Assembly (NCBI GenBank): GCA_024516155.1
Contig: JAJJXM010000078.1
Span: 186,001-250,000 of the forward strand
Reading direction: 5' to 3'
Origin: Pyronema omphalodes
Lineage: Eukaryota; Ascomycota; Pezizomycetes; Pezizales; Pyronemataceae
DNA length: 64,000 nucleotides
Notes under the pieces: model-generated
Databases searched by the model: none
Told to the model about the DNA's origin: nothing
What the model saw: only the letters and a program-made list of their open reading frames with translations
Program-made: the position numbers and the translations under genes
Shown here: in pieces, positions 4,504-54,515 of the stretch
Layout: every line of letters begins with the position of its first letter
Numbering within the stretch: position 1 is the first letter of the stretch

Positions 4504-4674
4504 TTAACGGAGGTGCCAGATATTGGTTTCGTCGTTATATTGAATTCGAGTTGCTGCGTATTCGTTTCCGAGTTGTCGAGCAATTTCGATTTCGTCAAGG
4601 ACGACGGGGTTTTCGAGGGAACGGAAGATCGGTAATAGGTTGATGAATTCGTAGAACCAGAGGTTGTGAAGCAT
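4504..4674 (-). CDS. Conserved 56-aa leader ORF upstream of gag (element B)
   Basis: ATG at 4674, TAA at 4504-4506; the stop is 9 nt before the gag ATG. The product starts MLHNLWFYEF, contains DEIEIARQLG and ends WHLR. The F-family element has an ORF of identical length in the same place with roughly 60 percent of residues unchanged, and D and G carry 76-aa relatives sharing a GIP motif and an A-x-QL-type helix. I know of no named domain for it. Its position suggests either a protein of its own or an upstream ORF that controls gag translation by reinitiation. Confidence 0.7.
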   Translation of the reverse strand: MLHNLWFYEFINLLPIFRSLENPVVLDEIEIARQLGNEYAATRIQYNDETNIWHLR

Positions 4675-4723
4675 GTAAAGCTTGTTGTAATCGAGAGTTG
4701 ACGGTAGAGCCGGCAGGTCTTGA

Positions 4724-4735
4724 TTACACAGTTAT
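4724..4735 (-). promoter_or_regulatory. Putative self-priming primer-binding site, element B
   Basis: On the minus strand this is ATAACTGTGTAA, starting 2 nt after the 5' LTR end. The LTR itself carries the complement TTACACAGTTAT (minus strand, 5018-5007) downstream of its TATA box. There is no TGG as expected for a tRNA 3'-end primer. Confidence 0.65.
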
Positions 4736-4737
4736 GT

Positions 4738-5877
4738 TGTAACGGCGAACAAGGGAGAGGTAGCTGACGGAGAACCTGGGGGCTCTTCTCAATTATCCAC
4801 TCTTGAGTTCAATGGATATATCCTTATAATAACTTCAACGTTAGAAACTCTTAAGCTGTGTCTAGCATCAACTTAAAGACTTTCTGTGTTTAGAAGTTAA
4901 GGAAATAAACAGAGATTTCAAGGGACAAAGAGATCCAAAGACGGGGACGAGAACGAGGACGTAAACAAAGATTTTCGACAAAGTATTTGAATTTGTAAAT
5001 AAACAAATAACTGTGTAAGGAGAAAAGAAAAACAAAATAAACAAACAAAGAAACAATCCTCTTATATACAATTTTTCCTCCTTACACGCCGAGCCACTAC
5101 TTGCAGAATTTTCCCGAAAAATAACTAAGTAAACAACGCGGTCGCGGTTGCGCGTTCTAGACGCGCTAACGCGTTCGTACCAAATTAGCGTGTTTGCGTG
5201 CACAGCCTCGTCGTGCGCTCGTTAGCGTATCTCGCGTGCGCGATAGCGTAACTCGCGTGCGCGGTAGCGTGCTTCGCGTGCGCGCTAGCGTAACCCTAAG
5301 CGTAGTCACGCGCGCGCTTCCGTAACCCTAATCGTGCGCGTGTGTCCGTAACCCTAACCCTAGCTGTGCGCGTACGGTCACAAACCTAACCCTAGTTTGT
5401 GTGCGTGCGGGTGCAACCCTAACCCTAGTCACGTGAAACCAGATCAGCTGCGATTGGAAAGATGGTGCAATACTGATAAGGTCACATGACTAGATCTTAT
5501 CTTATCGATAAGATGATCGTGCCCTAGCCCTAGTCACGTGTGCGCACATTAGTAGACCAGTGCGCGTGCATACTGATCTACTATTGATTAGAACACGTGA
5601 CCGATCTTATCGAATCGGATAAGATGATCGGTAGACCGTAGGTATGGAATTTCCGAAAAGGGATCCGAGCTGACCCCTAACCCTGGGGATAAATCACGTG
5701 ACCTTTTTGACAATTTGGGAATTGAGCGCAACCCTAACCCAGGCGAGTGACGAGTGATGATCGAAGACCGAAGGATAATAGAAATAAATAAACAAACGAG
5801 TGCTGGATAATGAAGCGAATGATAATAGGTGAATGAATGACGAGGAGGGGGAAGGTAATAATTCTCGAGCCGTGACA
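4738..5877 (-). repeat. 5' LTR of element B (1140 bp)
   Basis: Minus-strand LTR with TGTCACGG at 5877 and CCGTTACA at 4738, the same length and layout as the LTR at 2879-4018. With that LTR it forms a large inverted repeat separated by 719 bp. Confidence 0.94.
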
Positions 5878-6388
5878 TGAACAACATTTCGAGCGAGGGA
5901 TATTTCTCCTTTAGTGGGTTTTCGGCAGCAAGTTGAAGATTCTCAGGTAAGTTGTAGGGTTTTAAGACAGCTTGTTGGTTGGCTAACAGTCGTTCATCCC
6001 CTGCCTTTGGCAGGTCTCCAGACCTTCGAGTCAAGGCATCGGGTTTACCACCTGCAGTCCCGGGCCGGTAGATGATCTTGAAGTTGAAGCGTGACAAAAA
6101 TTCAGACCACAGGGCCTGACGGCGGTTCAGAAGCTTGGTAGTCATGAAATATTCGAGGTTTTTATGATCAGTGAGAATCTGGATGGGGAATGCTGACCCC
6201 TCAAGGTGAGGACGCCATTCTTCGAAGCAGCGGACAATCGCCATCAATTCCTTATCATAGATCTCGTAGTTGCATTCCGCTGGTGAATGCTTCTTGGAGA
6301 AGAAGGCAACTGGGTGCAATATACCATCATCATCGTACTGTGATAACACACCGGCAGAAACGTAGTCTGACGCATCGGTTTCCACTAT
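5878..6388 (-). pseudogene. pol: Element D pol fragment (end of RT / RNase H)
   Basis: Minus-strand frame with RNase H signatures ([15 protein letters not shown] near 6370, YDKELMAIV near 6250, TDHKNLEYF near 6155) and the tether that follows. It is cut at 5877 by the LTR of B and at 6389 by element E. Reading continues on the far side of E: the residues RDI at 15331 and the following TIVETD here are neighbours in a normal gypsy pol. So this is one D gene split by E. Confidence 0.9.
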
Positions 6389-15330: not shown

Positions 15331-17081
15331 GATGTCGCGATCATAGTCAAAGTGTCGCAGGACTGGTGCGGTCGTAAAAGAGGTTTTTAACAAATCAAAG
15401 GCCTTCTGTTGGTCCGGACCCCAGATGAATGGCACGGGTTTGCCGTTTTCCTTCTTGGTAAGACTGGTAAGGGGGGCTACGACTTTCGAGTAATCGCGGA
15501 TGAATCGTCGGTAGAAATTTGCAAATCCAAGGAATTCTTGGACATCCTTGAGGTTGCAAGGGTTTTGCCATTTTACCACTGTTTCTACCTTTTTTGGATC
15601 CATCTTGATACCGTCTCGTCCAACCAATAACCCAAGATACTTGACTTCTGTTTGGTGAAACTTGCATTTTTCTGGTTTTAGGTGGAGGCCGGCATTCTTC
15701 AAGGCTTCAAGAACCTGGCGGACATGTTTCCGGTGATCGTCCAAGTTTTCGGAATATATCAGGATATCGTCAAGGTATGCGGTACAGAAGAGGTCGAGGT
15801 ATGGTCGAAGAACATCATTGATAAATGCCTGGAAATCAGCTGGGGCATTCGTAAGTCCGAAAGGCATAACAAGGGACTCGAAGAGGCCATAACGAGTGCG
15901 AAATGCAGTTTTCCATTCTTCCCCTTCTGCCATGCGTACAAGGTTGTAAGCACCTCGAATGTCCAATGTTGTGACGTACTTGGCCTTAGACAGTTGTAGC
16001 AGGGTTTCTTGAATCAGGGGCAAGGGGTATCGATTCTTGATAGTTCCTTCATTCAATCCACGATAGTCTACACAGAGATGCAGCGAACCATCGGATTTCT
16101 TGACAAACAGGATTGGTGAGGCTGCTGGCGATGATGACCGTCAGAAAATCTTTTGGAAAGATTCTCCTCGAGCCATGCGTTGAGGGCCTCTAGTTCTGTG
16201 CGCGACAGGGAATACAGGGGGCCAAAAGGTGGTGTAAATCCTTCCTTCAACGGGATCCGGTGGTCGTAGGGTCGGTGGGGTGGAAGCTTATTGGCAACAG
16301 CCTCTTTGAACAAGTTCAAGAAGTCGTGATACTCGGTTGGTACGATTCGTTTCAGGTCCTCAGGAGTGTTGACTTTGTTTTCGAGGGCTTTATTTAACTC
16401 GTACAGAGACAGGGAAAATATGGAGAGTCTCTGTTTCTTAGCCACTCGACAGAAGGAAGATGCTGTCAGGGAGGCGATGTGTAGTTTGGCTGGGGCCGCA
16501 GAGAGTGGGTATAGGAAGGTTTCTGGAGGTTCTTCACTGAGACCAGAGACAGTTGTTGGTACTGGGTTGCAGTGGGCCAGGCAGTATTGTGATCCAAACG
16601 TGATTGTTCCTGAGCTGAAGCGAATTGCAACATCATGAAGTTGCAACCAGGGGATTCCAAGGACTAGGGGGTAGTGGCCTAATTTAGTGACCAACATAGG
16701 GAGCTGTTCGCGGTGCTCGTGTATGGTGCATTGAGCAAGGGCAAGGTGGGTGATGTCACCAGAGGCAATAGGGCGGCCATCGATGACTTCCAGGGCACGG
16801 GGTTTTCGTAGGGGTTGCAGGGGGATTTGGTGATGGTGGGCGAAGTCTTCATCAACAAAGGAGACACCAGTGGCGCCACAGTCGATTAGCGCATGGGTAC
16901 GAATGTTTTTATCACCAAAGGTAAGCGTGCAAGAGACAACAAGATGTTTTCCTTCCATTGACATTTCTTCTACTACTGCATTCGTAATTCCAGGACCAGG
17001 TACTTTCCAACTAAATGAAGACAACAAAAGAGAGTGACCAGCAGCATAGCCATCTATGTGCGGCTGGTCTAGGCATTTCCC
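15331..17081 (-). pseudogene. pol: Pol of element D, protease and RT part, frameshifted
   Basis: Enters from the -1 slip site at 17081. Protease carries DCG instead of the usual DTG or DSG (ALIDCGATG near 16895). A PPHRPYDHRIPL linker and the RT follow, with YLDD near 15775-15765. Near 16135-16155 the frame shifts: in the register needed for RT, a TGA appears where relatives have GFIR-S-SSPAA, so an indel, perhaps with a CGA to TGA change, has broken the gene. It ends at RDI where element E is inserted. Confidence 0.88.
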
Positions 17082-18211
17082 GACTCCTCGTCAGAGAGGG
17101 GGGTCTCCGGAACTGGGTTAGGTGCAACTGCTGCAGCACGAAGGGTGGCCGGTTTATTCGGGCAGGCTGCAGCCATGTGTCCATGTCCACCACAGTAGAG
17201 GCAGCGACCTTCAGCTAGGCGAGCAGCGCGTTCCTGGGGTGTAATCTTGCGTCGATTAGCAGAGAGGTCCATGGGGGCAGGTCCGTAGTAGGGTGTGCTG
17301 GGCGGAGCAGGTCGTTGAGCGGGTGCAGGAGCGAAGGCGGGTGGGGCTGCACGGGGTGTGGCATGACTGGTAGTGCGGGAACCAGTTCTCAACTTTCGCA
17401 GATTATCGATGGCATGGATCTGGGAGTCCAGGTTTTGACACTGGTTGACGAAGGTGCGGAGATCGGTAGCAGGGGGTGCCCCAATGAGTTTCCCGAGAAT
17501 CTCAATGGACAGGCCATTGCGAAGAGCATTCATGGTAGCACGTTCATCCCAGTTAAGTTCAGAGACCAACCTAGAGAACTCAGCGTAGTAGGCTGAGAAC
17601 TCCTTGTTGCCTTGTCGGAGGGCCTGGAGCTTGTGTCTAGCGGTTGCAGCTGCATCGGGATCGCCAAAGGTAGCCCGAAGGATCCTGATAACATCTTCAA
17701 CATCGTCCAGGGATGCCGTTTCGCCATCTTCGCGGATGAAGGGGATCAGTTGTTGCATGGCACGACCTCGGAGGCGTCCCACAGTGTAGGCAACACGTTG
17801 TCTGGCAGTGGGGTAGCGACCCTGGTCACTGAGGAGCTTGAGGCGTAGGTGGGTAACAAATGCTCGGAGTTCTTCCCTGGAGCCATCATACAAAGGTGCA
17901 TCAGGGAGTTTCTCACCCTGGCCCGCAGGCTGTGGGGCAGCAAGGAGGCGGGTGATGATTTCGCGTTGTCGGGAAAGTTCGGCTTCCGCAGCATTGGCCC
18001 GAGCAGTTTCCTCAGCCAGGGTTGGTTGGTTGGGGTCAACATCAGGTTCTGGGGCGGGATCGGGCAGGACATGGTCAGGGGCGTTGAGAACATGACCACA
18101 GAGGTTGCGGACAAAGTTGACCGGACCAATTGTGGGGTCGAAGGCGGTGATAGTGGAAGCATCTTGGATGTTAGCCCAGAGCTCATCGGTGAAGGTTTTG
18201 TGGACAGGCAT
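17069..18211 (-). CDS. gag: Gag of element D
   Basis: 380 codons from ATG 18211 to TAG 17069-17071, uninterrupted. An N-terminal segment (MPVHKTFTDELW) is followed by an acidic/proline linker, a charged helix, the retrotransposon gag core (DGSREELRAFVTHLRLKLL through YYAEFSRLVSELNW) and a CX2CX4HX4C zinc knuckle (CLYCGGHGHMAAAC, near residue 336). The start is 3 nt after the stop of the upstream 76-aa ORF. Gag is the particle protein; the sequence is clearly related to the gags of G and J. Confidence 0.9.
   Translation of the reverse strand: MPVHKTFTDELWANIQDASTITAFDPTIGPVNFVRNLCGHVLNAPDHVLPDPAPEPDVDPNQPTLAEETARANAAEAELSRQREIITRLLAAPQPAGQGEKLPDAPLYDGSREELRAFVTHLRLKLLSDQGRYPTARQRVAYTVGRLRGRAMQQLIPFIREDGETASLDDVEDVIRILRATFGDPDAAATARHKLQALRQGNKEFSAYYAEFSRLVSELNWDERATMNALRNGLSIEILGKLIGAPPATDLRTFVNQCQNLDSQIHAIDNLRKLRTGSRTTSHATPRAAPPAFAPAPAQRPAPPSTPYYGPAPMDLSANRRKITPQERAARLAEGRCLYCGGHGHMAAACPNKPATLRAAAVAPNPVPETPLSDEESGNA
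17075..17081 (-). other. -1 slippery heptamer GGGAAAT, element D
   Basis: Minus strand, in phase as TCG GGA AAT GCC TAG at the end of gag. A -1 slip enters the open pol frame. The form X XXY YYZ is the standard retroviral slip pattern. Confidence 0.7.
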
Positions 18212-18214: not shown

Positions 18215-18445
18215 TTAGCGGCGGGGTACTGGGACAGTGAGGGTAAACAGGATTGAGCTGGAGTTTCCGGAGGTTGACGGTGGTTGGTATTTCCACAGGA
18301 TTGCTAGATAGCCGTATTCTTTGGCAAGCTGGAGGGCGATCTGGGCGTCTTCGTAGTAGGAGGTCGGGATACCAAATCTGAAGAACAGGTGTTCTGGACT
18401 GATCAAGGCAGGTTCGAATTCGCGGACCCAAGTGACTTTGTTCAT
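18215..18445 (-). CDS. Conserved 76-aa leader ORF upstream of gag (element D)
   Basis: ATG 18445 (MNKVTWVREF), TAA 18215-18217, only 3 nt before the gag ATG. Near residue 24 it has FGIP, followed by AQIALQLAKEYGYLAILWK. This lines up with FGIP and CYLVVRW in the equally long G ORF, and with GIP and IARQLG in the 56-aa ORFs of B, K, N and F. Function unknown. Confidence 0.65.
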   Translation of the reverse strand: MNKVTWVREFEPALISPEHLFFRFGIPTSYYEDAQIALQLAKEYGYLAILWKYQPPSTSGNSSSILFTLTVPVPRR

Positions 18446-18625: not shown

Positions 18626-19163
18626 TGTAACGGGACAGGCTCGAGGGAACGACCAAGGTACGCAGTGTTCAGGACAGAGGGCAGGAACAGGAACGTAGAG
18701 CAAGAGGAGGAGATACTGGAAGGAGGAGGCAGAGGTCAAGACGAAGACAAGGCTGGAGGAGGAGGAGTTGTCAAGGTAACTAGATTGCTAACTGGACAAG
18801 ACGTTCTGTAAAGAAGAAAGAAAAGGAAACAGACAGAGCGGAGGGAGAGCCCTCCTTATATACACAAATCCTCCTAAGAACAACCCAAACCCTAACAGGG
18901 TTTTCAACCGAGCCAAGAACCTAAACAAGGAAGCCAAGAGCCTAATGCATGTGATAACAATGTGGCGCTTGTGCCGATGAAACGAACTAAGATAACTAAG
19001 ACAGAAAAGGAAGGTGGTAAGGAAAGGACAACTAGTGTGTTGCGGCTGCGAGGGTGGCTGAACTGGTGCTGACATGTGATGTGGCGCAGCCCTGCGGCTG
19101 CGCTCTATGACTGTGCAGGCTAAGGCAATCCAGAATACGGGTGACGATGCTGGAGCCGTAACA
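18626..19163 (-). repeat. 5' LTR of element D (538 bp)
   Basis: Minus-strand LTR starting TGTTACGG at 19163 and ending CCGTTACA at 18626. The outer boundary is fixed because the interrupted RT frame of element H (motif DRTPL) stops exactly there. It contains a TATATAAG promoter box. Confidence 0.85.
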
Positions 19164-28500: not shown

Positions 28501-29269
28501 AACCTTTTCGAAAATTTCCAGGAACTCGTGGTATTCGGTGGGAACGAGGGTCTTTAGGTCTGGTTTGGCGTCCGCAGGGTCTCGTAGGGCCATGTTGATT
28601 TCGTTTAGGGATAGGTGAAAGGGTTCGACGTTACCGTATCGTTGGTTATTGTTCCTGACGATTCTTTTGAACGTCGTGGCTGAGATTGCGCAGATTTTGT
28701 TTCGTCGATCTGGTGGTAGGCCCTTGATTGGGGGTGCCTTGACGGCGGCGCGGTGGGGCAGGCAGTTAGGGGAGCGGAATTGGATGTCGTTAGTTGCGAA
28801 GTTGATGGTAACGTCATGCTTCTTCAACCAAGGGATCCCGAGGACGAGGGGGGTAGTGACCGAGGGAGGTTAAGTAGGCGGTCAGGATTTCGTGGTGATC
28901 ACCAATGGTGCATGGGATCTTCACATATTCTGTGATGTCGCCGGAGGAGATTGGGCGACCGTCTATTACTTCAACTGTTTTTGGGGATTTTAACTGGTAG
29001 CGGGGGAGATTGTGCTGGCGAGCGAAGGTCTCATTCATGAAGGAGAGTCCCGTACAACCACAATCAACAAGGGCACGGGTATCAATTTTGATGTCACGGT
29101 TGGTCAAAGTGCAGGGTACGACTAAATGACTACCATCCATTTCATTTTCTTGACTAATTGATAGGGAACTTGCTGATACGTAGAGTTTATTTTGGGACGA
29201 GGGGAACGAAGAGGCCGGGGCAGGTCCACCAGGAGGGCCAACGGGCTGATGGTGGACTATTCTTTTCCC
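25543..29269 (-). pseudogene. pol: Pol of element F with one frameshift and one stop
   Basis: Enters from the slip site at 29269. Protease VDCGCTG lies near 29060. At the C run 28848-28853 (six C where the frame needs five) the reading frame is lost after LGHYP. It resumes as KKHDVTINF, reaches TGA 28342-28344 where relatives have Arg (GFIR), and is then open for 909 codons. RT has YLDD near 27980, RNase H ETDASDF near 27530, integrase H-H-C-C and D-D-E (MDFVTG, SDRGPQF, TERMNAT), and the chromodomain is near 25730-25640. Apart from these two lesions the protein is well preserved. Confidence 0.92.
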
Positions 29270-30384
29270 TCCTCGGGGCTGGGGATAGAGGAGGTTTCCT
29301 GGGGGGGTGATAGGAGGTCCGCGGCGGCGAGGCGTAACTTCCGAGAGGTGTTCGCTGCTAGGGAGGGGCAGTCGTTTTTGAAGTGGTCTGCCGACCCACA
29401 GTAGAGACATAACCCCTTTGCCATTCGCTCGTCCCGGCGGCGTTGATTCTGGGCTTTCTGCGATGCAGAGAGGTCCATGGGTGCGGAGCCGTAGTTGCCA
29501 CTATTCGAGTTTGTTGGGTGAGCTGATGGTCGAGTGGCTGTAGGGAGCGTGCGGGGGGTGAGCGTCGGAATTGTTCGTTTGGAAAGGGTGCCGTGGGCTC
29601 TGAGTCGGTAGTCCAGCTTCTGGCAGAGTTCGACGAACTTGGTGAAGTCTTGTGGTTCGTCCGCTTGGTAGACGAGGCTCGATTGTAATTCTCTCGAGAG
29701 TCCTCTCTTTAGGGCAGCCTTTTTTGCGTTTGCGTCGAAGTTGAGGATGGCCATGATTCGTTGAAATTCGGCATAGTATACGCTGAATTCTTTATTGCCC
29801 TGGTTTAGTTTGTCGAGCTCCATCGAGGCGGTGCCGACCTGGTCTGGGTCTCCGAAGGCGGACTCAAGGATGGTGATCAGTTCTTCGGCGTCTTTTAGAT
29901 TGATTTTGTCCGTGAGTACGTAGGGTTGGACCTGATTTTGTGCGTTTCCTTTCAGGTAACCGTAGAGGTAGCGGAGCTTATGTTGGTCGTCGGTGAAGCG
30001 GGCTGAGTCTCCAGCCAACTTGGACCTAACCTTGGAGACGAAGTTGGGGAGTTCCTTTCGGTCTCCGGTGAATTCGGGCGGGTGGGGGAGCTCGATCGGT
30101 CTCATCGAGGGGGAGGCCGATTTTTCCGTGATCGATTGTAGCAGGCGAATTGTAGTATTTGCGGATCCGAGATCCCGTTCCAGGTCGGAGATTCGTCTTG
30201 CGTAATCCGAGTTGTCCTTCCTGGAGTCTGTCAATTCTGCCTGGAGATCGGTCAATTTCTGGCGGTCTCGTTTGTAGTCATCGACTGCATTACGGAGATC
30301 TTTTAATTTCGTGGGGTCTCTATTGATCTCGTCCCTTTGCGCTGCGTTTAGGAACAGCGCGATGACGATTTCTTGATCGTCCAT
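29257..30384 (-). CDS. gag: Gag of element F
   Basis: 375 codons, uninterrupted, starting MDDQEIVIALFLN. A charged, probably coiled-coil N-terminal third (DRQKLTDLQAEL...SDLERDLGSA) is followed by the gag core (HPPEFTGDRKELPNFVSKV through YYAEFQRIMAILNF), a linker with PMDLSASQKAQNQRRR and the zinc knuckle CLYCGSADHFKNDC. It is colinear with K gag throughout. The ATG follows the leader-ORF stop by 16 nt. Confidence 0.92.
   Translation of the reverse strand: MDDQEIVIALFLNAAQRDEINRDPTKLKDLRNAVDDYKRDRQKLTDLQAELTDSRKDNSDYARRISDLERDLGSANTTIRLLQSITEKSASPSMRPIELPHPPEFTGDRKELPNFVSKVRSKLAGDSARFTDDQHKLRYLYGYLKGNAQNQVQPYVLTDKINLKDAEELITILESAFGDPDQVGTASMELDKLNQGNKEFSVYYAEFQRIMAILNFDANAKKAALKRGLSRELQSSLVYQADEPQDFTKFVELCQKLDYRLRAHGTLSKRTIPTLTPRTLPTATRPSAHPTNSNSGNYGSAPMDLSASQKAQNQRRRDERMAKGLCLYCGSADHFKNDCPSLAANTSRKLRLAAADLLSPPQETSSIPSPEEGKE
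29263..29269 (-). other. -1 slippery heptamer GGGAAAA, element F
   Basis: Minus strand, in phase as GAG GGA AAA GAA TAG; the -1 frame reads RIVHHQPVG into protease. Confidence 0.72.
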
Positions 30385-30658: not shown

Positions 30659-31225
30659 TGTAACGGGAGCGCGGGGATTCGACGGGGGAGCGGGGAACCC
30701 GGGGGCTCGCAATCGGAGACGAGGGACTCGATTGGGGGACAGGGACTCTGAGACAGCGCCAACGTAGGATATCGGGAACTGTGTCGTGCAGCAGTTCCTC
30801 GATGCTCCGTGTTTAGGGGCAAGAGGTGTCACCGGAGGGAGGCTCGGTAGCGAAGCGAGGGCAGGGTGTCGTGATGAGGGCGGCCTTCACGAAGCGAAGC
30901 CGGAGAACGGAGACGGAGGCGAGAACGTAGCGAGGATCGAGAAAGACGAAGGAATTTATTTAAATAGATAAACAAATAACTGAGTGAGGAAAGAAAAGGA
31001 AAACAAAACAGAACGCAGGGAGGATAAGTCCTCTTATATACATCTTTCCTCCTCTTAGATACCAAGAAACTAAATACGTTGTGACTGCTTTTGCTAAACT
31101 CACTCGGTCGCTGTTCGCACAATTGCGGGCGCTCGGGTAAGCTCTGCGGAGGACCGAGTGATAATTCGTGACGCGGGGCGGGGGGGGAAGGCGCCGAGTG
31201 ATGGCGTGTGAGGCGAGCCGTGACA
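30659..31225 (-). repeat. 5' LTR of F (567 bp)
   Basis: Minus-strand LTR with the same ends and length as 24936-25502; two CpG-type differences noted. Confidence 0.94.
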
Positions 31226-34400: not shown

Positions 34401-35225
34401 ACCATCGACGAGTGATATCTTGTGATCCGACGGTCGATGGGGCGGTAACTTATCGGCGTTGACTTTTTCGAAGATTCCCAAGTACTGGTGATATTCGGGT
34501 GGTACAATAGTCTTAAGATCCGGTTCCTCTTTCTCTGGCCGAAGAGCTGTGGTGATTTCATTCAAAGATAAGGAGAATTGTTCGACTTTTCCGTAACGGT
34601 TGTTGGCATTGTTTACAATTCGTCGAAACGTCGTAGCTGAAATGGCACAGATCTTATTCTGTTGTTTCGGAGCAATACCCTTAACAGGGGTGGGTGTTAA
34701 CGTGGTTCGGTGGGGGAGGCAGTTCGGTGATGAGAATTTGATATCGTTATCGGCGAAGTTTATTGTAACATCGTGTTTACGAAGCCATGGGATTCCTAAA
34801 ACGAGGGGATAATGACCAAGCCGAGTAACGTAGGCAGTTAGTAATTCATGATGGTCTCCTATTGTACATTCGACTTCAACGTATTCGGTGATGTCTCCTG
34901 ATGAAATAGGTCGTCCATCAATTACTTCGACCATTTTGGGGTTTTTCAATTGATAACGGGGGAAGTTGTGTTGGCGTGCGAAGTCTTCGTTCATGAAGGA
35001 AATTCCTGTGCATCCGCAGTCTACGAGAGCATGAGTATCGATCTTGGTATTGTGTTCAGTTAGTGTACATGGCACGACCAAATGATTCCCATCCAATTCG
35101 TTTTCTTGTTTACTTGACAAAGAACTAGCGGATACATAAACGATTTCCTGAGATGAAACGAAAGACGAGGCAGGGGCTGGTCCAACAACAGAGCCAACAG
35201 GCTGTTGATGGACTACTCTTTTCCC
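31497..35225 (-). CDS. pol: Pol polyprotein of element K, intact
   Basis: Uninterrupted frame to TAA 31497-31499; it extends as an open frame up to 35354 but is entered at the slip site 35225. Numbered from 35354: protease with VDCGCTG at 111-117; RT with YLDD near 473; RNase H with ETDASD near 617; integrase zinc finger and D-D-E near 931, 990 and 1028; GPY/F segment (YGPLKIIAKVSPYAYRL); chromodomain from about 1224 (YFIEAILD, VKWVGYDMPDW). Every catalytic motif is present. The protease uses DCG where DTG or DSG is usual, as in D, F, G, H and J. Best candidate for a working enzyme source in the window. Confidence 0.94.
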   Translation of the reverse strand, partial: GKRVVHQQPVGSVVGPAPASSFVSSQEIVYVSASSLSSKQENELDGNHLVVPCTLTEHNTKIDTHALVDCGCTGISFMNEDFARQHNFPRYQLKNPKMVEVIDGRPISSGDITEYVEVECTIGDHHELLTAYVTRLGHYPLVLGIPWLRKHDVTINFADNDIKFSSPNCLPHRTTLTPTPVKGIAPKQQNKICAISATTFRRIVNNANNRYGKVEQFSLSLNEITTALRPEKEEPDLKTIVPPEYHQYLGIFEKVNADKLPPHRPSDHKISLVDGFQPPFGPLYSLSRPELEELKRWLDENLTKGFIRASSSPAAAPILFVKKGDGSLRLVVDYRGINAGTIKNRYPLPLMQDTLMNLSRAKWFTKLDIRGAYNLIRMANGEEWKTAFRTRYGLFESLVMPFGLTNAPATFQNFINDVLAPYLDRFCTAYLDDTLIYSDNLEEHKQHVKLILEAFEKAGLHLKPEKCEFHQKEVKYLGLIISTEGIKMDPEKITAVRDWESPRNLKDVRAFLGFANFYRRFVKNYSKIVQPLTLLTRKGVPFIWSESQQQAFEELKSTFTSAPVLARFDPDRDVIVETDASDYVSAGVLSQYDDEGILHPIAYFSKKHSPAECNYEIYDKELMAIVRAFEEWRPELQSVINPIRVLSDHKNLEYFTSTKLLNRRQARWSQFLSQFNFKIVYRPGTAGGKPDALTRRSGDLPKEGDERSLENHTTIIKPENILHAAAVTPSNQQTITNSQQTVIPDPQQTNPTLSQLFTEAYEKDPFPIKVIEMLNNNTRYCKDITLAECTVNNNRLFYRGCLWVPNYEPLRLHLMQQHHDSPTAGHPGRSKTLEYLSRTYTWPQMRTDVERYIRNCHTCQRSKPTRHAPFGILRPLPIPERPWQDISMDFVTGLPWSNGCDAIWVVVDRLTKERHLIACRTDIDAKELSSLFITHIFRLHGLPLTIISDRGPQFAALFWKNLCRRLGIEPRLSTAFHPQTDGQTERMNAIMEQYLRAHVNYLQDDWADWLPLAEFAANNQASETTGTSPFFANKGFDPRCQFDLLPAATNDVNDRRALTTSKTLAEIHNHLRAEINRANLRYQENADKRRLPSPNYQPGDLVWMNARNWKTRRPSRKLDNKRYGPLKIIAKVSPYAYRLELPPTMKCHNVQHVSLLEPAANDPYPGQQSDPPPPVEIDGEDEYFIEAILDSRIHRKKLQYMVKWVGYDMPDWEPAELHSDSKAVDDFHKKYPDKPGPLPNLS

Positions 35226-36331
35226 TGGTCGACGTCGGGGTTTGTTGGAATATCCAAAACCTCGGCGGCGGCTAGGCGAATCTTGCGGGAGTTGTTTGCT
35301 GCCAACGTAGAACATTCGTTCTTGAAATGATCGGCTGATCCACAATAAAGACAAAGTCCCTTAGCCATTCGTTCATCACGACGGCGTTGGTTCTGAGCCT
35401 TTTGGGAAGCTGATAGGTCCATGGGAGCCGATCCGTAATTACCACTATTGGTATTCGTTGGGTGGGACGCCGGGCGAGACGGCGTGGAGCTGGAACGACT
35501 GGGGACCGAAGAAACGTGCCGCTTTGTGGTGTTTGAATGAGCTCGAATTCTGTAATCTAGCTTCATACAAAGATCCACAAATTTGGTGAAGTTCTGAGGT
35601 TCTTCGGCTTGGTAAACAAGACTGGTCTGAAGGTCTCGAGAGAGTCCACGCTTCAGAGCAGCCTTCTTTGCGTTTTCGTCGTAGTTCAAGATAGCCATTA
35701 ATCGTTGGAATTCTGCGTAGTATTGGCTAAACTCACGGTTGCCCTGTTGAAGTTTATCCAATTCCGCCGATGCAGTACCAACTTGATCAGGATCTCCGAA
35801 GGCAGCTTCCAGAATTGTAATGAGAGCCTCAACGTCCTTAAGCTTAATCTTATCTGTAAGGACGTAGGGTTGAATTTGATTCTGAGCGTTGCCTTTGAGA
35901 TATCCATAAGTATAACGTAGCTTATGTTGATCATCGGTAAAACGGGAGGAGTCTCCGGCGAGCTTGGATCTGACCTTCGAGATGAAGTTCAAGAGTTCCT
36001 TGCGTTCACCAGAGAACTCAGGTGGGTGAGGTAATTCGATGGGACGGGTATTCGGAAGGGGACCGTTCTTCGTAAGGGCTTGTAGGAGTCGAACGGAGGC
36101 GTTGGCGCTTTCGAGGTCTCTTTCCAAATCGGTAATTTGTTGAGCGTAGAGGGAGTTGTCCTTTCGAGCTTCTGTGAGTTCGGCTCGGAGGTCGTCCCTA
36201 AGTTGACAGTCTCGTTCGTATTCTTTTACGGCGTTACGGACCAATTTGATCTTCGTAGGGTCCTGTTCGACCTCTAACCTTTCGGCTTCGTTGAGGTACA
36301 GGGCCACGACGACCTTGTTGTTTTGGTCCAT
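35213..36331 (-). CDS. gag: Gag of element K, intact
   Basis: 372 codons from ATG 36331 (MDQNNKVVVALYLN) to TAG 35213-35215. The N-terminal charged helices (ERDCQLRDDLRAELTEARKD) look coiled-coil forming. The gag core spans about residues 105-260 (HPPEFSGERKELLNF to YYAEFQRLMAILNY), and a CX2CX4HX4C zinc knuckle (CLYCGSADHFKNEC) sits near 327-340. Gag would assemble the particle and package RNA carrying this family's leader, including that of N. The start is 9 nt after the leader-ORF stop. Confidence 0.94.
   Translation of the reverse strand: MDQNNKVVVALYLNEAERLEVEQDPTKIKLVRNAVKEYERDCQLRDDLRAELTEARKDNSLYAQQITDLERDLESANASVRLLQALTKNGPLPNTRPIELPHPPEFSGERKELLNFISKVRSKLAGDSSRFTDDQHKLRYTYGYLKGNAQNQIQPYVLTDKIKLKDVEALITILEAAFGDPDQVGTASAELDKLQQGNREFSQYYAEFQRLMAILNYDENAKKAALKRGLSRDLQTSLVYQAEEPQNFTKFVDLCMKLDYRIRAHSNTTKRHVSSVPSRSSSTPSRPASHPTNTNSGNYGSAPMDLSASQKAQNQRRRDERMAKGLCLYCGSADHFKNECSTLAANNSRKIRLAAAEVLDIPTNPDVDQGKE
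35219..35225 (-). other. -1 slippery heptamer GGGAAAA, element K
   Basis: Minus strand, in phase as CAG GGA AAA GAG TAG; the -1 frame reads RVVHQQPVG into protease. Only one codon separates it from the gag stop. Confidence 0.72.
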
Positions 36332-36340: not shown

Positions 36341-36511
36341 TTAACAGAGGTGCCAGATATTGGTTTCGTCGTTATATTGAATTCGAGTTGCTGCGTATTC
36401 GTTTCCGAGTTGTCGAGCAATTTCGATTTCGTCAAGGACGACGGGGTTTTCGAGGGAACGGAAGATCGGTAATAGGTTGATGAATTCGTAGAACCAGAGG
36501 TTGTGAAGCAT
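36341..36511 (-). CDS. Conserved 56-aa leader ORF upstream of gag (element K)
   Basis: ATG 36511, TAA 36341-36343. Essentially the B and N sequence (MLHNLWFYEF, DEIEIARQLG, WHLR). It is the first ATG of the leader, so ribosomes scanning from the cap would meet it before gag. Confidence 0.7.
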   Translation of the reverse strand: MLHNLWFYEFINLLPIFRSLENPVVLDEIEIARQLGNEYAATRIQYNDETNIWHLC

Positions 36512-39061: not shown

Positions 39062-39590
39062 TGTCACGGCACACGGCTGACGAGCCGTTGTGTTGCGTCA
39101 TCTTGTTGTCGTGGTTGTTGATTGACATCGTGCCGTTGTCTTGCCGTGTTGTGTTGCCGTTGTGTTGTTGTGTTGTTGTGCGTGCCGTGCCATGTTGACT
39201 GAGAGACTGATTGATGATGGATGACGTACCACGAGCTGGAGAGCTGTGGCGTCGCAGTTGAATCGATGGAGAACGGAAGCTCATGTAGCGATGATTGTAT
39301 GACGGCCCAGCAAGAGTGCTGGCCGCCCCTTTGTACATAAGGAGGCTTGCCTCCCCGTTGTCGAGATTCTCCATCGAACGTCTTGTGTCTTCTCCTGACT
39401 CCTAATATAAGAATTCCTCTCCTAAGTCCTACGTCACTCTTGTCCTTGTCCCTGTCCCTGTTTAGTGTGCCGTCCGTCTGACGAGCACTTCGGTCCTTGT
39501 CCTGCCGTTCCCCGTTCCGGAACCTGCCTAGTCCCTCTTTCCGGTAGTGTTCAGTGTGTCCCTTGAACGTCCGTTCTCGTGTCCCTGACA
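39062..39590 (+). repeat. 5' LTR of G (529 bp)
   Basis: TGTCACGGCACACGG to GTCCCTGACA. TATA-like TACATAAGG at 39334-39342; ATCGAACGT at 39373-39381 pairs with the primer site. Confidence 0.94.
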
Positions 39591-39857: not shown

Positions 39858-41205
39858 ATGCATATTAAACTTATTGACGAAGGCCACTGGCAACAAATTG
39901 TGAACGCCGCCGCCATGACCCAGTTCCCCGACGGCCATGAACCGCTCACCTTTACAAAACAACTCGCACAATCCATTTTAGACGCTCAGGACCACCCCAC
40001 GGGTTACCTCCTAAATGACCTCGCGGAAACCCCCGGCTCTCGTAACAGCACTCGGGTATCCAGCCCTGTCGCCTCCCGCGCTCCGGAAGCTCCCACCCCT
40101 GCTCCCATTCCCCCTGTCGTGATCCAGACTGGCTCCGTCCAGGTCTACCCGAACGGCCCAGAACCAGCACCGCGAGCCGCCGCACCCCCTACCACAGCCG
40201 CAGCCGCAGCCCCTCGCCCCCGCGATAATCGCACCAATTCCTAGACCCCCCCCCCGTGACCCCGAGATCCTCCTAACCCCGGAGGAGCAAGCCGATACAA
40301 ACGAAATCCACTACTACGAGAAAGAACTCACCCGCCAGCGTGAGCTAATCAACGCGCTACTCGCCTCCCCCGGCATCCGCGTAACCGGAGACAAAATCTC
40401 GGATCCGCCAACCTTCGACGGGTCCAACAGGGAGGACCTCCGCCGCTTTGTCTCCTTGCTTCGTATCAAGTTAGTGAGCGATGAACTACGTTTCCCGACC
40501 CCCCATGAACGGATTTCTTACGCCATGGGCCGCCTCCGCGGACGCGCCCTGGATCAGATTCTTCCTTACATCAAGGAAAACGGCAACCGCTGGGCTCTCA
40601 ACGACGTCGAGGACGTCATTAAAATTTTACAGCGTACCTTCGGAGACCCGGACGAGCGCGCAACGGCTCGTTTCAAACTACAGAATCTCCGACAGAACAA
40701 CCGCGAATTTTCGGACTACTACGCAGAGTTCTCCCGCCTAGTCGCAGAGTTAGGCTGGGACGAAGCCGCCACCATGGATGCCCTGCGTAACGGCCTGTCC
40801 CTGGAGCTACACGAGAAGTTGGTTGGTGCCCCGCCCACCACCACGATGCACGAATTCGTCGAGCAGTGTCAAAAATTGGACTCCCAATTAAGGGCACTTG
40901 AAAACCTCCGCAAGCTGCGTACCAACCGCGGCCAAGTTAAGACCACTACCACCGCCACCCCCACCACCAGTCGCCCCACCCCCGCTACCCAAGCCACCAT
41001 CGCCTCCTCCAGCAAGCAAACCCCGGCCCAGGGACCCCGTCAGAAACTGGCGGCACAGGAGCGCGCGACCCGCCTATCAGAAGGACGTTGCCTCTACTGC
41101 GGTGGCCTCGGCCACATGGCTGCGTCGTGCCCCGCCAAGACGAATGTTAAAGTGGCGAGCGTGGAATTAGTGGATGCTGAAGAAGAAGTGTCGGGAAAAG
41201 AATAA
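39858..41205 (+). pseudogene. gag: Gag of element G with a 1-nt insertion
   Basis: Starts MHIKLIDEGHWQQI. A proline/alanine-rich linker precedes the core. Compared with J there is one extra T at 40214 (CCCCTCGCC against CCCCCGCC), after which the original frame ends at 40244 while the core continues in the next frame to TAA 41203-41205: DPPTFDGSNREDLRRF, YYAEFSRLVAELGW and zinc knuckle CLYCGGLGHMAASC. The lesion lies in low-complexity sequence, so a read error is possible. Confidence 0.88.
41193..41199 (+). other. -1 slippery heptamer GGGAAAA, element G
   Basis: In phase as TCG GGA AAA GAA TAA at the end of gag; the -1 frame continues RINQLQEDGSAAG into protease without a stop. Confidence 0.72.
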
Positions 41206-45935: not shown

Positions 45936-47270
45936 GACACCTCTTCTTCATTATCCAATAATTCCACGCTCGCCACTTTAACATTCGTCTTGGCGGGGCA
46001 CGACGCAGCCATGTGGCCGAGGCCACCGCAGTAGAGGCAACGTCCTCCTGACAGGCGGGTCGCGCGCTCCTGTGCCGACAGTTTCTGACGGGGTTCCTGG
46101 GCAGGGGTTTGCTTGCTGGAGGAGGCGGTGGTGGCTTGGGTAGCGGGGGTGGGGCGACTGGTGGCGGGGGTGGCGGCGGTAGTGGGTTTAACTTGGCCGC
46201 GGTTGGTACGCAGCTTGCGGAGGTTCTCAAGTGCTCTCAATTGGGAGTCCAATTTTTGGCACTGGTCAACAAATTGGTGCATCGTAGCGGTGGGAGGGGC
46301 GCCAACCAACTTTTCGTGCAACTCGAGGGACAGGCCGTTACGCCGAGCATCCATGGTGGCGGCTTCATCCCAGCCTAATTCTCCGACCAGTCGGGAGAAC
46401 TCTGCATAATAGTCCGAAAATTCCCGGTTGTTTTGTCGGAGATTTTGTAGTTTGAAACGAGCCGTTGCGCGCTCCTCCGGGTCTCCAAAGGTACGCTGTA
46501 AGATTTTAATGACGTCCTCGACGTCGTTGAGGGCCCAGCGGTTGCCATTTTCCTTGATATAAGGAAGAATCTGATCCAAGGCGCGTCCGCGGAGGCGGCC
46601 CATGGCATAAGAAATCCGTTTGTGAGGGGTTGGGAAGCGTAGTTCGTCACTCACCAACTTGATGCGAAGCAAGGAGACAAAGCGGCGGAGGTCCTCCCTG
46701 TTAGAGCCGTCGAAGGTTGGCGGAACCGGGATTTTGTCTCCGGTCACGCGGATGCCAGGGGAGGCGAGTAGCGCGTTGATGAGTTTACGCTGGCGGGTGA
46801 GCTCCTTCTCGTAGTAGTGGATTTCATTCGTATCTGCTTGTTCCTCCGGGGTTAGGACGATTTCGGGGTCTCGGGGGGGGGGGTCTTGGAATTTGTGCTA
46901 TTATAGCGGGGGCGGGGGCTGCGGCTGTGGCTGTGGTAGGGGGTGCGGCGGTTCGTGGCACTGTTTCTGGGCCATTTGGATAAACCTGGACGGAGCCGGT
47001 CTGGATAACGACAGGGGGAATGGGGGCAGGGGTGGGAGCTTCCGGAGCGCGGGAGGCGACAGGGCTGGAGACCCGAGTGCTGTTACGGGAGCTGGGGGTT
47101 TCCGCGAGGTCCTTTAGGAGGTAGCCCGTGGGGTGGTCTTGGGCGTCTAGGATGGATTGCGCGAGTTGTTTGGTGAAAGTAAGCGGTTCATAGCCGTCAG
47201 GGAACTGGGTCATGGAGGCAGCGTTCACAATTTGCTGCCAGTGTCCTTCGTCGATAAGTTTAACGTGCAT
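45923..47270 (-). pseudogene. gag: Gag of element J with a homopolymer frameshift
   Basis: ATG 47270 (MHVKLIDEGHW). The frame ends at 46824 because the C run at 46874-46884 has eleven C where G has ten (40246-40255). The core then continues in the shifted frame to TAA 45923-45925: PPTFDGSNREDLRRF, YYAEFSRLVGELGW and zinc knuckle CLYCGGLGHMAASC. The end is in phase with a GGGAAAA heptamer (45929-45935). Confidence 0.87.
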
Positions 47271-47502
47271 TCTGGCGGGCTCGGAGGATTGGCTTGAGTG
47301 TGATGGTGTGGCAGACGTGCTCCTGGTAAGGGTAGTCCTGGAGTTCCCAGCGGACCACAAGGTAGCAGTGATTTTCTGCTCTTCGGATGGTTCTTCGCAC
47401 TGCGCCAGCGAATCGGTCGGAAATCCCGAAGGTTTTGTTTAGGGTGTGCGTTTCCAGGGCTTGTTTTAAGGTGTATGTCCAAGCAGAACCGGTGGGGTTC
47501 AT
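47260..47502 (-). CDS. Leader ORF of element J, 80 aa, overlapping gag
   Basis: ATG 47502 (MNPTGSAWTY). It closely matches the G ORF, but the TAG that ends the G ORF is CAG here, so translation runs on for four residues and stops at 47260-47262, overlapping the gag ATG (47270) by 11 nt. Most differences from G leave the protein similar. Confidence 0.65.
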   Translation of the reverse strand: MNPTGSAWTYTLKQALETHTLNKTFGISDRFAGAVRRTIRRAENHCYLVVRWELQDYPYQEHVCHTITLKPILRARQNAR

Positions 47503-47537: not shown

Positions 47538-48066
47538 TGTCAGGGGACTAGGAACGTACGTTCAAAGAACACACTGAACACTACCGGCAAGGGGGACTAG
47601 GCGGGTTCCAGGATGGGGAACGGAAAGACAAGGACCGAAGCGCACGTCAGACGGACGGCACACGAAACAGGGACAGGGACAAGGACAAGAATGACGTGGG
47701 ACTGAAAGGAGAAGTCTTTATTAAGGACAAGGGAAGGACACAAGACGTTCGATGGAGAACTCGACAACGGGGAGGCAAGCCTCCTTATGTACAAAGGGGC
47801 GGCCAGCACTCTTGCTGGGCTGTCATCCAACATCGCTACATGAAAGCTTCCGTTCTCCAGCCATTCACCTGCGACGCCACAGCTCTCCAGCTCATGGTAC
47901 CTCATCCATCATCAATCAGTCTATCAACCACAACGGCACGGCACACACAACAACACAGCGACAACACAACACAACCCGGCAAGACACCGGCACGATGTCG
48001 ACAACAACAACGACAACATAATGATGACGCAACAACACAACGGCTCGTCAGCCGTGTGCCGTGACA
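47538..48066 (-). repeat. 5' LTR of J (529 bp)
   Basis: TGTCACGGCACACGG at 48066 down to CCTGACA at 47538 on the minus strand; same length as the G LTRs but visibly diverged in the middle. Confidence 0.9.
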
Positions 48067-52392: not shown

Positions 52393-52431
52393 GGATCCCC
52401 CTTCTTGGACTGAGCTCCGGCGAAGTAACTT

Positions 52432-54196
52432 CTAAGATAAGTTGGGGAGGGGTCCCGGTTTATCGGGATACTTTTTATGAAAGTCGTCAACGGCTTTACT
52501 GTCGAAATGGAGTTCGGCGGGTTCCCAATCGGGCATATCGTATCCAACCCATTTAACCATGTACTGAAGTTTCTTCCGGTGAATTCGGGAGTCGAGGATA
52601 GCTTCGATGAAGTATTCGTCTTCACCGTCGATTTCCACCGGGGGTGGTGGGTCTGATTGTTGACCGGGGTAGGGGTCATTCGCAGCGGGTTCCAATAGGG
52701 AAACATGTTGAACGTTGTGACATTTCATTGTCGGAGGTAGTTCTAATCGATAGGCATAGGGGGATACTTTGGCGATAATCTTGAGGGGTCCGTAACGTTT
52801 GTTATCTAATTTCCGGGAGGGTCGACGGGTTTTCCAATTACGGGCATTCATCCATACCAGATCTCCGGGCTGATAATTCGGTGACGGGAGTCGATGTTTA
52901 TCGGCATTCTCTTGATAACGTAGGTTAGCTCTGTTGATCTCAGCTCGTAAATGATTATGGATTTCGGCGAGGGTTTTCGAAGTTGTGAGGGCCCGTCGAT
53001 CGTTTACATCGTTCGTAGCTGCTGGAAGTAAATCGAATTGACAACGGGGGTCGAATCCTTTATTGGCAAAGAACGGGGAAGTTCCCGTTGTCTCGGATGC
53101 TTGGTTATTCGCAGCGAATTCCGCTAATGGTAACCAATCAGCCCAATCGTCTTGAAGATAGTTGACGTGAGCTCGGAGGTATTGTTCCATAATGGCGTTC
53201 ATTCGTTCTGTTTGGCCGTCCGTTTGGGGATGGAATGCTGTAGATAACCGAGGCTCGATTCCCAAACGTCGACAGAGATTCTTCCAAAACAAAGCAGCGA
53301 ATTGAGGTCCTCGATCAGAGATAATGGTAAGAGGGAGTCCATGCAATCGAAAGATGTGGGTAATAAACAAAGACGATAATTCCTTTGCGTCGATGTCTGT
53401 TCGACAGGCAATCAGATGTCGTTCTTTGGTTAATCTATCCACAACTACCCAAATTGCATCACACCCATTGGACCACGGTAATCCTGTTACGAAGTCCATT
53501 GATATGTCCTGCCAGGGTCTTTCTGGAATAGGTAGTGGACGTAGAATACCAAACGGGGCATGTCTGGTAGGTTTCGAACGTTGGCAGGTATGACAATTTC
53601 GAATATACCTTTCCACGTCTGTCCTCATCTGGGGCCACGTATAGGTTCTTGAGAGGTATTCTAATGTTTTAGATCTACCTGGGTGTCCAGCCGTAGGAGA
53701 GTCGTGGTGTTGTTGCATTAGGTGTAATCGTAGGGGTTCGTAATTCGGGACCCATAAACATCCCCGGTAGAATAAACGGTTATTGTTTACTGTACATTCA
53801 GCTAGTGTAATGTCTTTACAATAACGAGTGTTATTGTTTAGCATTTCAATAACCTTAATGGGGAATGGGTCTTTCTCGTAGGCTTCCGTGAAGAGCTGGG
53901 ATAAGGTGGGGTTTGTTTGTTGTGGGTCCGGTATTACGGTTTGTTGCGAATTCGTTATTGTTTGTTGATTACTGGGGGTAACAGCCGCAGCGTGAAGGAT
54001 ATTCTCTGGCTTAATGATCGTTGTGTGGTTCTCTAGGGAGCGTTCATCCCCCTCTTTAGGCAGATCTCCGGATCGACGAGTCAGTGCGTCTGGTTTACCG
54101 CCTGCGGTACCGGGGCGGTAAACAATCTTAAAATTAAACTGAGACAAGAACTGGGACCAACGGGCTTGACGGCGGTTCAAGAGCTTTGTCGAAGGT
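52432..54196 (-). pseudogene. pol: Element N pol remnant (end of RNase H, integrase, chromodomain)
   Basis: Open frame identical in layout to the last 582 codons of K pol: [10 protein letters not shown], integrase H-H-C-C, MDFVTG, SDRGPQF, TERMNAI, chromodomain. There is no start of its own, because gag is fused out of frame upstream. So it is coding sequence without a route to expression. Confidence 0.92.
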
Positions 54197-54335
54197 CGTC
54201 CCTAAGTTGACAGTCTCGTTCGTATTCTTTTACGGCGTTACGGACCAATTTGATCTTCGTAGGGTCCTGTTCGACCTCTAACCTTTCGGCTTCGTTGAGG
54301 TACAGGGCCACGACGACCTTGTTGTTTTGGTCCAT
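54188..54335 (-). pseudogene. gag: Element N gag remnant
   Basis: ATG 54335 (MDQNNKVVVALYLN). It follows K gag to QLRDDL, then passes through the deletion point into pol sequence and meets a TGA within a few codons. K pol and a gag copy (B, near 4350) share TCGAAG at the breakpoint. Confidence 0.9.
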
Positions 54336-54344
54336 TTCGAGGGA

Positions 54345-54515
54345 TTAACGGAGGTGCCAGATGTTGGTTTCGTCGTTGTATTGAATTCGAGTTGCTGCGT
54401 ATTCGTTTCCGAGTTGTCGAGCAATTTCGATTTCGTCAAGGACGACGGGGTTTTCGAGGGAACGGAAGATCGGTAATAGATTGATGAATTCGTAGAACCA
54501 GAGGTTGTGAAGCAT
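54345..54515 (-). CDS. Conserved 56-aa leader ORF (element N)
   Basis: ATG 54515, TAA 54345-54347. Kept intact in an element that has lost most of gag and pol; this may simply reflect youth or may point to a cis role in the RNA leader. Confidence 0.65.
   Translation of the reverse strand: MLHNLWFYEFINLLPIFRSLENPVVLDEIEIARQLGNEYAATRIQYNDETNIWHLR

What the first reader, a model, noticed from the sequence alone, without database searches (positions are those of the whole stretch)
4504..54515. A conserved small ORF sits immediately before gag in four LTR families
ORFs at 4504-4674 (B), 30401-30571 (F), 36341-36511 (K), 54345-54515 (N), 18215-18445 (D), 39626-39856 (G) and 47260-47502 (J). Lengths are fixed, 56 aa in B/F/K/N and 76 aa in D/G. 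The stop-to-gag-ATG distance is 9 nt (B, K, N), 16 (F), 3 (D) and 1 (G); J overlaps gag by 11 nt after losing its stop. The proteins share a GIP motif followed by a helix of the form IA-x-QL, then a Tyr/Trp-containing strand. B against F keeps roughly 60 percent of residues although flanking DNA differs. It is the first ATG in the leader, so either gag is reached by reinitiation, or the peptide has its own function, or both. I know of no description of such a third gene in these elements.
Basis: partly seen in the sequence, partly recalled or inferred. Interest (0 to 1): 0.9.

Follow-up and report, generated by a model that had tools for sequence, protein, structure and literature searches.

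The report
Extra small gene before retrotransposon gag
Four families of jumping genes in this genome, probably that of a fungus, carry an extra 56-80-residue gene just before the usual gag gene, and its sequence changes like that of a real protein, so these elements appear to make a small third protein of unknown job.

Summary
The small ORF is real. It lies between primer-binding site and gag in four self-priming Ty3/gypsy families (B=K=N, F, D, G=J) and recurs across the assembly (119 B-type and 14 F-type matches, 24 D-type copies, at least 150 G-type). It evolves as protein: omega 0.17 (G), 0.33 (B+F), 0.43 (B), 0.59 (D), each below 1 by likelihood ratio, D only just. Seeded by gag, 63 of 63 open B gags and 12 of 12 open F gags have it, 60 and 12 without a stop. 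D and G ORFs are homologous (0 of 2000 shuffles); B-D is marginal, B-G not shown. One claim is reversed: G/J is normally 80 aa and overlaps gag by 11 nt (39 of 40 copies read); window copy G has a private stop. In B it is not the first ATG. Its start context is poor, gag's better, and the family representatives have no ATG between. I favour leaky scanning, with the product a small trans-acting accessory protein; its function is unknown. Larger pre-gag ORFs are known in plants; the paper listings I saw show no report of this one.

The parts
4504..4674 (-). pre-gag ORF, family B copy B, 56 aa
   Evidence: translation; 100% match at G000:C209:190507-190674
36341..36511 (-). pre-gag ORF, family B copy K, 56 aa
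54345..54515 (-). pre-gag ORF, family B copy N, 56 aa
30401..30571 (-). pre-gag ORF, family F, 56 aa; 13 identical copies (this one included) and one at 96% in the assembly
18215..18445 (-). pre-gag ORF, family D, 76 aa
39626..39856 (+). pre-gag ORF, family G copy G; 76 aa because of a private TAG at codon 77 (family norm 80 aa)
47260..47502 (-). pre-gag ORF, family G copy J, 80 aa, overlapping the gag ATG by 11 nt
54333..54335 (-). gag ATG of N (context CTCGAAATGG, G at -3)
29257..30384 (-). gag of F (DUF4939 and Retrotrans_gag above cut-off; zf-CCHC below cut-off)
17069..18211 (-). gag of D (Retrotrans_gag above cut-off; CCHC-type knuckle CLYCGGHGHMAAAC)
35213..36331 (-). gag of K (DUF4939 and Retrotrans_gag above cut-off)
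39858..40244 (+). gag start of window copy G, frame ends early (decayed copy)
   Evidence: arithmetic; some G-type relatives have open gag frames of 452-513 aa
54579..55719 (-). 5' LTR of N (TATA-like box 50 nt before the self-priming segment)
54848..54859 (-). self-primer segment in R of N, TTACACAGTTAT
54565..54576 (-). primer-binding site of N, ATAACTGTGTAA, 2 nt after the LTR
30976..30985 (-). self-primer segment of F, ACTCAGTTAT (PBS ATAACTGAGT at 30647-30656)
18801..18809 (-). self-primer segment of D, ACAGAACGT (PBS ACGTTCTGT at 18615-18623)
39373..39381 (+). self-primer segment of G, ATCGAACGT (PBS ACGTTCGAT at 39593-39601)
47745..47753 (-). self-primer segment of J, ATCGAACGT (PBS ACGTTCGAT at 47527-47535)

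Best explanation
These are self-priming (Tf1/sushi-like) Ty3/gypsy elements whose genomic RNA is bicistronic at its 5' end. SHOWN by sequence: a 56-80-codon ORF between primer-binding site and gag is kept by purifying selection on its protein sequence (strong in G and B+F, weak in D), and it is present in every open-gag copy of B and F that a gag-seeded search listed, and with every full-length, stop-free gag start at 82% identity or more in D (G was not tested that way). INFERRED: scanning ribosomes meet this ORF at an AUG in poor context (-3 T or C). Some initiate there and make the small protein. The rest leak past and initiate at the gag AUG (-3 purine) a few bases before or after the ORF's end. 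INFERRED, weaker: the product folds as a small helix-helix-beta-hairpin protein and acts in trans as an accessory protein of the transposition cycle, for instance on Gag assembly or on the element's own RNA, while the upstream start also sets how much Gag is made.
For: Codon models: G omega 0.166 (2dlnL 70.4 against omega=1; 31 distinct sequences), B+F 0.334 (27.3; 12), B 0.434 (12.7; 11), D 0.587 (4.6; 14). Pairwise dN/dS is lowest in the true frame in all six pairs tested in six frames, e.g. L060-L104 0.073/0.828 and N-F 0.257/1.016. Constraint on gag in the same G copies is of the same order: 0.08-0.16 against 0.09-0.23 for the ORF in 7 of 9 pairs. Seeded by gag, 63 of 63 open B gags have the ORF (60 without a stop) against 49 of 54 broken gags (40 full-length without a stop), Fisher p 0.0014 for the stop-free counts; F 12 of 12. 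D: all 19 full-length, stop-free gag starts at 82% identity or more have it intact, paired by eye. Start contexts: ORF -3 is T/T/T/C and gag -3 is G/A/A/A in B/F/D/G, nearly invariant among copies. No ATG in any frame lies between the two starts in N, F, D, L060 and L104, nor in 41 of 41 G rows. In G/J the gag ATG precedes the ORF stop. Genomic RNA should start upstream of the ORF: R/PBS complementarity of 9-12 nt sits 38-55 nt after a TATA-like box, with changes on both sides between B and F and between D and G.
Against: There are no expression, ribosome-profiling or mass-spectrometry data. The ATG-free stretch is only modestly unusual once the protein is fixed: P(0) 0.50, 0.66, 0.53, 0.17, product about 0.03, and 6 of 43 B rows and 5 of 28 D rows do have an intervening ATG. 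Other frames also fall below 1 in places (0.30 in frame +1 for L060-J, 0.27 antisense for N-L091), and in L060-J first-position changes outnumber third (16 against 10). Two of 10 B pairs (L096, L097) and nearly L047 in D have dN/dS near 1. At +4 only B and F favour gag (G against C); in D and G gag has C and the ORF has A. Charge differs strongly (pI 4.8 in B, 10.4 in G), so one shared biochemical role is not obvious. No known fold or family matches. B-G homology is not shown. Element C lacks such an ORF, so it is not essential to all LTR elements here.
Confidence: 0.6

Rival explanations
1. Cis-acting attenuator: the encoded peptide stalls or is translated only to limit ribosome flow to gag (nascent-peptide or uORF control), with no job for the released protein.
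For: Position just before gag, poor start context, first ATG in three of four families. Constraint on a nascent peptide would also lower dN/dS.
Against: Conservation is spread along the protein, not concentrated at the C terminus: B against F 13, 13, 9 identities per third; the D-G match covers residues 4-55 of D and not the tail. The stop position shifts relative to gag between families. Lengths of 56-80 codons are long for an attenuator peptide (recalled knowledge).
Confidence: 0.16
2. Gag is reached by termination-reinitiation after the ORF rather than by leaky scanning; the product may or may not function.
For: Stop and gag ATG lie close together in all families (-11 to 16 nt), as in known stop-start coupled messages (recalled).
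Against: Spacing varies and is negative in the G/J family. A TURBS-like TGGGA is absent in N, F and D and at different places in the two G-type copies scored. Long upstream ORFs with short gaps reinitiate poorly in eukaryotes (recalled).
Confidence: 0.14
3. The ORF is a split-off N-terminal part of Gag, joined to it by readthrough or frameshifting.
For: Purifying selection; adjacency; in L002 a stop-loss makes a natural in-frame fusion.
Against: Relative frame is not conserved: in frame with a stop between in B and D, shifted in F and G. Gag has its own ATG with a purine at -3. I did not run a systematic search for a recoding signal.
Confidence: 0.05
4. Conservation reflects an RNA element (packaging signal or structure) that happens to be open in one frame.
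For: The 5' leader is where packaging signals often lie (recalled).
Against: Changes avoid second codon positions in the G pairs (L060-L104: 16, 3, 21 at positions 1, 2, 3), and dN/dS is lowest in the coding frame in all six pairs. In N-F the contrast is weaker (12, 14, 23). RNA structure of the leader was not modelled.
Confidence: 0.05

Closest known systems
Pea/Medicago Ogre elements, ORF before gag
   Same: An extra forward ORF lies between the 5' LTR and gag in a Ty3/gypsy element (passages read: PMC1142308, a 550-codon ORF; PMC2533021, an ORF of 1527 bp in an Ogre family).
   Different: About 500-550 codons against 56-80; a plant Tat-lineage element with tRNA priming (PMC2533021, PMC6317226 passages) against self-priming elements. 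Sequence comparison with the Ogre ORF was not made.
Rice Retrosat2 ORF0 (also RIRE3, RIRE8)
   Same: An extra ORF upstream of gag-pol, kept among relatives, faster evolving than the polyprotein; mean Ka 0.257 and Ks 1.65 (passages of PMC3485330).
   Different: Described there as not found outside grasses, and predicted by its authors to be enzyme-like. Here the ORF is at most 80 codons with no family match.
Tf1/sushi-group self-priming LTR retrotransposons
   Same: PBS complementary to the predicted 5' end of the element's mRNA; chromodomain in the B-family pol. Self-priming in Tf1/Tj1 as in PMC4600332 and PMC6317226 (passages).
   Different: Tj1 in PMC4600332 is described with Gag and Pol frames (passages read); no pre-gag ORF is mentioned in the passages I saw.
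Fungal Gypsy elements with an 'add. ORF' (PMC2864245, Figure 3 legend)
   Same: The figure shows elements from fungi and one spikemoss element, and its legend lists an additional ORF of unknown function.
   Different: Position and element not visible to me (figure not held); cannot be excluded as a precedent.
Leaky-scanned small accessory genes of compact viruses (works-like comparison, recalled)
   Same: Two ORFs in one 5' region, weak then stronger start, no AUG between.
   Different: No homology tested or claimed; here in a retrotransposon, and initiation was not measured.

Membership tests
Tf1/sushi-like self-priming chromovirus | PBS complementary to the 5' end of the mRNA (R) instead of a tRNA | tested here: met
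   12, 10, 9, 9 and 9 nt in N, F, D, G, J, all 38-55 nt after a TATA-like box; 0, 4, 7, 7, 15 of 5000 shuffles reach this. Sequence only: mRNA start not measured, tRNA complementarity not searched.
Tf1/sushi-like self-priming chromovirus | chromodomain at the C terminus of integrase | tested here: met
   Pol at window 2-2836, same family as B/K/N by DNA identity: Chromo E 2.3e-6, above cut-off; SH3_Tf2-1 E 5.3e-17. Pol of F, D and G not scanned.
Tf1/sushi-like self-priming chromovirus | placement in the clade by RT/integrase phylogeny | not tested
   No tree was built.
Plant Ogre/Retrosat2 pre-gag ORF | ORF between 5' LTR and gag | tested here: met
Plant Ogre/Retrosat2 pre-gag ORF | large ORF (about 500 codons in Ogre) | tested here: not met
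   56-80 aa
Plant Ogre/Retrosat2 pre-gag ORF | sequence homology to those proteins | not tested
   No Pfam match at E<=1; no direct comparison was made
Protein-coding gene | dN/dS below 1, lowest in the proposed frame | tested here: met
   D weak, two of 10 B pairs near 1
Protein-coding gene | translated product detected | not testable with these tools
   no expression data
Leaky-scanning bicistronic leader | upstream AUG in weak context, downstream AUG in stronger context | tested here: met
   position -3 in all four families; +4 agrees only in B and F
Leaky-scanning bicistronic leader | no AUG between the two starts beyond chance | tested here: inconclusive
   0 in the representative of each family; product of protein-preserving shuffles about 0.03
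One protein family across B/F, D and G | significant sequence homology between families | tested here: inconclusive
   D-G 0 of 2000 shuffles; B-D 22 of 2000; B-G 1525 of 2000; hhalign probabilities 26%, 2% and 0.1%

The most novel reading that the evidence does not exclude
A previously undescribed family of small retrotransposon accessory proteins, encoded as a true first gene before gag in several self-priming chromovirus families and co-expressed with Gag by leaky scanning. It would be an accessory gene in a group usually described as having only gag and pol.
Probability: 0.53. Interest if true: 0.75.

Novelty: new variant of a known kind. Interest (0 to 1): 0.62.

Why it matters
LTR retrotransposons of fungi are usually described as gag plus pol (PMC3248453 passages; PMC2864245 section 5), and one large plant survey counted extra ORFs only from 250 codons up (PMC6317226). 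A selected 56-80-residue gene ahead of gag would mean that accessory genes exist in simple elements and have been missed for size. The bicistronic leader would also give a testable model for how Gag dosage is set.

Tried and rejected

Wider searches: viral contigs with A3 and A1 gave 0 confirmed of 40 and 102 pattern matches; genome contigs with A3 gave 0 of 147. The protein database gave P0007 and P0008 (G-type), P0009 (D-type) and the window's own B-type. Paper searches: 4 papers; 0; 20 of 54 listed; 5; 20 of 71; 20 of 24; 2. From those listings, and passages of 8 papers plus one section of one of them, I saw no small pre-gag ORF in fungal elements; that is the whole basis for 'no report found'.

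Rejected: TURBS-driven reinitiation, RNA-element-only conservation, split Gag (see rivals). In the gag comparison L107 and L050 look indel-shifted (all three codon positions change about equally) and were set aside.
Full report
What is there. The window (G000:C209:186001-250000 of a 60.8 Mb, 232-contig assembly) is rich in LTR retrotransposons. The seven ORFs are at the stated coordinates, six on the minus strand and G on the plus strand. They belong to four families: B=K=N (56 aa), F (56 aa), D (76 aa) and G=J. Self-comparison gives the LTR borders of all but D. The gag proteins of D, K and F score as Retrotrans_gag, those of K and F also as DUF4939. Pol of the B family, read at 2-2836, has RT, RNase H, integrase, SH3_Tf2-1 and a chromodomain. 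I infer a fungus from the element type; the organism was not identified.

Numbers. The B query gave 133 matches in the assembly, 119 B-type (7 of them partial) and 14 F-type. The D query gave 28 rows: 21 full-length copies, two frameshifted and one broken copy in two pieces each, and one G-type. The G query gave 150 scored of 295 candidates. Rows with a stop: 11 of 133, 2 of 28 (one copy) and 12 of 150.

Anatomy of the leader. In each family the bases just after the 5' LTR are complementary to a segment 38-55 nt downstream of a TATA-like box: N 12 nt, F 10 nt, D, G and J 9 nt. Pairing is kept through changes on both sides between B and F and between D and G. Shuffles of the 80-nt R region reach this in 0, 4, 7, 7 and 15 of 5000. 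This is the self-priming layout described for Tf1-type elements (passages of PMC4600332 and PMC6317226). If R starts there, the ORF's ATG is 251-414 nt into the message. It is the first ATG in F, D, G and J, but not in N (family B), where an ATG at -194 opens a 5-codon ORF.

Correction of the G/J reading. Of 40 distinct G-type copies read, 39 have an 80-aa ORF whose last 11 nt overlap gag's ATG. Window copy G carries a private TAG at codon 77, and its gag frame ends at 40244 (arithmetic). So 'J lost its stop' and 'fixed at 76 aa in D/G' are wrong for G.

Is it coding? A codon model on distinct stop-free sequences gives omega 0.166 for G (31 sequences, 2dlnL 70.4 against omega=1), 0.587 for D (14, 4.6), 0.434 for B (11, 12.7) and 0.334 for B plus F (12, 27.3); by chi-square with one degree of freedom these are about 5e-17, 0.03, 4e-4 and 2e-7 (my arithmetic). 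Many branches are dead copies, which should pull omega towards 1. Pairwise, L060-L104 has dS 0.83 and dN 0.073 in frame, while the other five frames give dS 0.04-0.33 and dN 0.14-0.26; N-F has dS 1.02 and dN 0.26 in frame. The true frame has the lowest ratio in all six pairs given to that test, but not always by much: L060-J is 0.25 in frame and 0.30 in frame +1, and N-L091 is 0.18 in frame and 0.27 on one antisense frame. Of 10 B pairs 8 lie at 0.14-0.35 and two (L096, L097) at 1.1-1.2; the four D pairs run from 0.31 to about 0.8. In G, gag of the same copies shows dN/dS 0.08-0.16 in 7 of 9 pairs against 0.09-0.23 for the ORF; L106 is barely diverged and L107 indel-shifted. D gag is as loose as the D ORF (0.45-0.56 in 3 of 4 pairs, the fourth indel-shifted). 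So the ORF is constrained as protein, somewhat less than gag in family G.

Does it stay with gag? Searching with a gag N-terminus, blind to the ORF, gives for family B 63 copies with an open gag frame of at least 350 aa: 60 have a stop-free full-length ORF, 3 a stop, 0 none. Among 54 broken gags 40 are stop-free and full-length, 6 have a stop, 3 are partial and 5 have none (Fisher p 0.0014). F: 12 of 12 open gags, and 2 of 2 broken ones, have it stop-free. D, paired by eye: all 19 full-length, stop-free gag starts at 82% identity or more coincide with intact ORFs; two further copies at 85-90% with a stop in gag have a frameshifted ORF, one at 68% with a stop-free gag start has a broken ORF, and two with a diverged gag start (42-60%) have an intact one. 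G was not tested this way. Element C (6389-15330), whose gag frame probably starts at 7901, about 130 nt after its LTR, has no such ORF.

One family or several? Column-shuffled local alignment gives D-G score 50.6, reached by 0 of 2000; B-D 28.3, 22 of 2000; B-G 16.0, 1525 of 2000. hhalign ranks them alike (P 0.0007, 0.023, 0.41) but with low probabilities (26%, 2%, 0.1%). A diverged G-type copy (L058) was found by the D query at E 0.07. The predicted structures of an F-type and a G-type protein share the order helix, helix, beta-hairpin, but neither matches a solved fold in these searches. I conclude D and G are homologous; B/F may be.

How gag is reached. At the ORF start -3 is T in 42 of 43 B rows (C in the other), T in 28 of 28 D rows, T in 2 of 2 F rows and C in 41 of 41 G rows. 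At gag -3 is G in 41 of 42 B rows (C in one), A or G in 22 of 22 D rows, A in 2 of 2 F rows and A in 41 of 41 G rows; 1 B and 6 D rows had no gag ATG at the expected place (a few rows repeat one copy). At +4 only B and F favour gag. No ATG in any frame lies between the starts in N, F, D, L060 or L104. Given the protein and codon usage this alone has P 0.50, 0.66, 0.53, 0.17 and 0.12, so it is suggestive only, and 6 of 43 B and 5 of 28 D rows have such an ATG. With the overlap in G/J and unconserved spacing, leaky scanning is the simplest reading.

What it does is inferred. The product is not one charge class (pI 4.8 in B, 5.5 in F, 6.7 in D, 10.4 in G), which speaks against one general nucleic-acid-binding role. 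Conservation is spread along the protein, which speaks for a folded product rather than a stalling tail. A Gag- or RNA-linked accessory role is my best guess.

Known context. Larger pre-gag ORFs exist in plants: Ogre (550 codons, PMC1142308; 1527 bp, PMC2533021) and Retrosat2 ORF0 (PMC3485330); passages read. A survey of fungal Gypsy elements lists an 'add. ORF' in a figure legend (section 5 of PMC2864245 read; figure not held). PMC3248453 (passages) describes fungal LTR elements as usually having gag and pol. In the listings (some capped at 20) and the passages read I saw no report of this gene; three further searches timed out. I file it as a new variant of a known kind. After rechecking, I lowered the two odds slightly, because the frame contrast is weaker in some pairs than I first wrote.

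Noticed in passing
window 51253-55719: Element N seems to have an internal deletion that joins the first ~140 nt of gag (to about 54195) to the pol region.
   Followed up: partly
window 6389-15330: Element C has LTRs identical over 1381 nt, no pre-gag ORF, and one in-frame stop (8390-8392) between the frames 7901-8392 and 8393-10084; only the second scores, weakly, as gag.
   Followed up: partly
L002: A natural stop-loss copy in which the pre-gag ORF reads in frame into gag.
   Followed up: no
window 54579-55719: The B-family LTR holds several telomere-like agggttaggg motifs.
   Followed up: no
window 61802-62890 (-): Ankyrin-repeat protein with weak C2H2 zinc-finger matches.
   Followed up: no
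L050, L051 against L034: Two D-type copies with identical ORF proteins keep an 83% identical pre-gag ORF while their gag start is much more diverged or frame-shifted.
   Followed up: partly
proteins P0007, P0008, P0009: G-type and D-type pre-gag proteins occur on short public contigs (longest 1988, 644 and 2162 bases); one carries the unlikely source name 'activator of HSP90 ATPase'.
   Followed up: no
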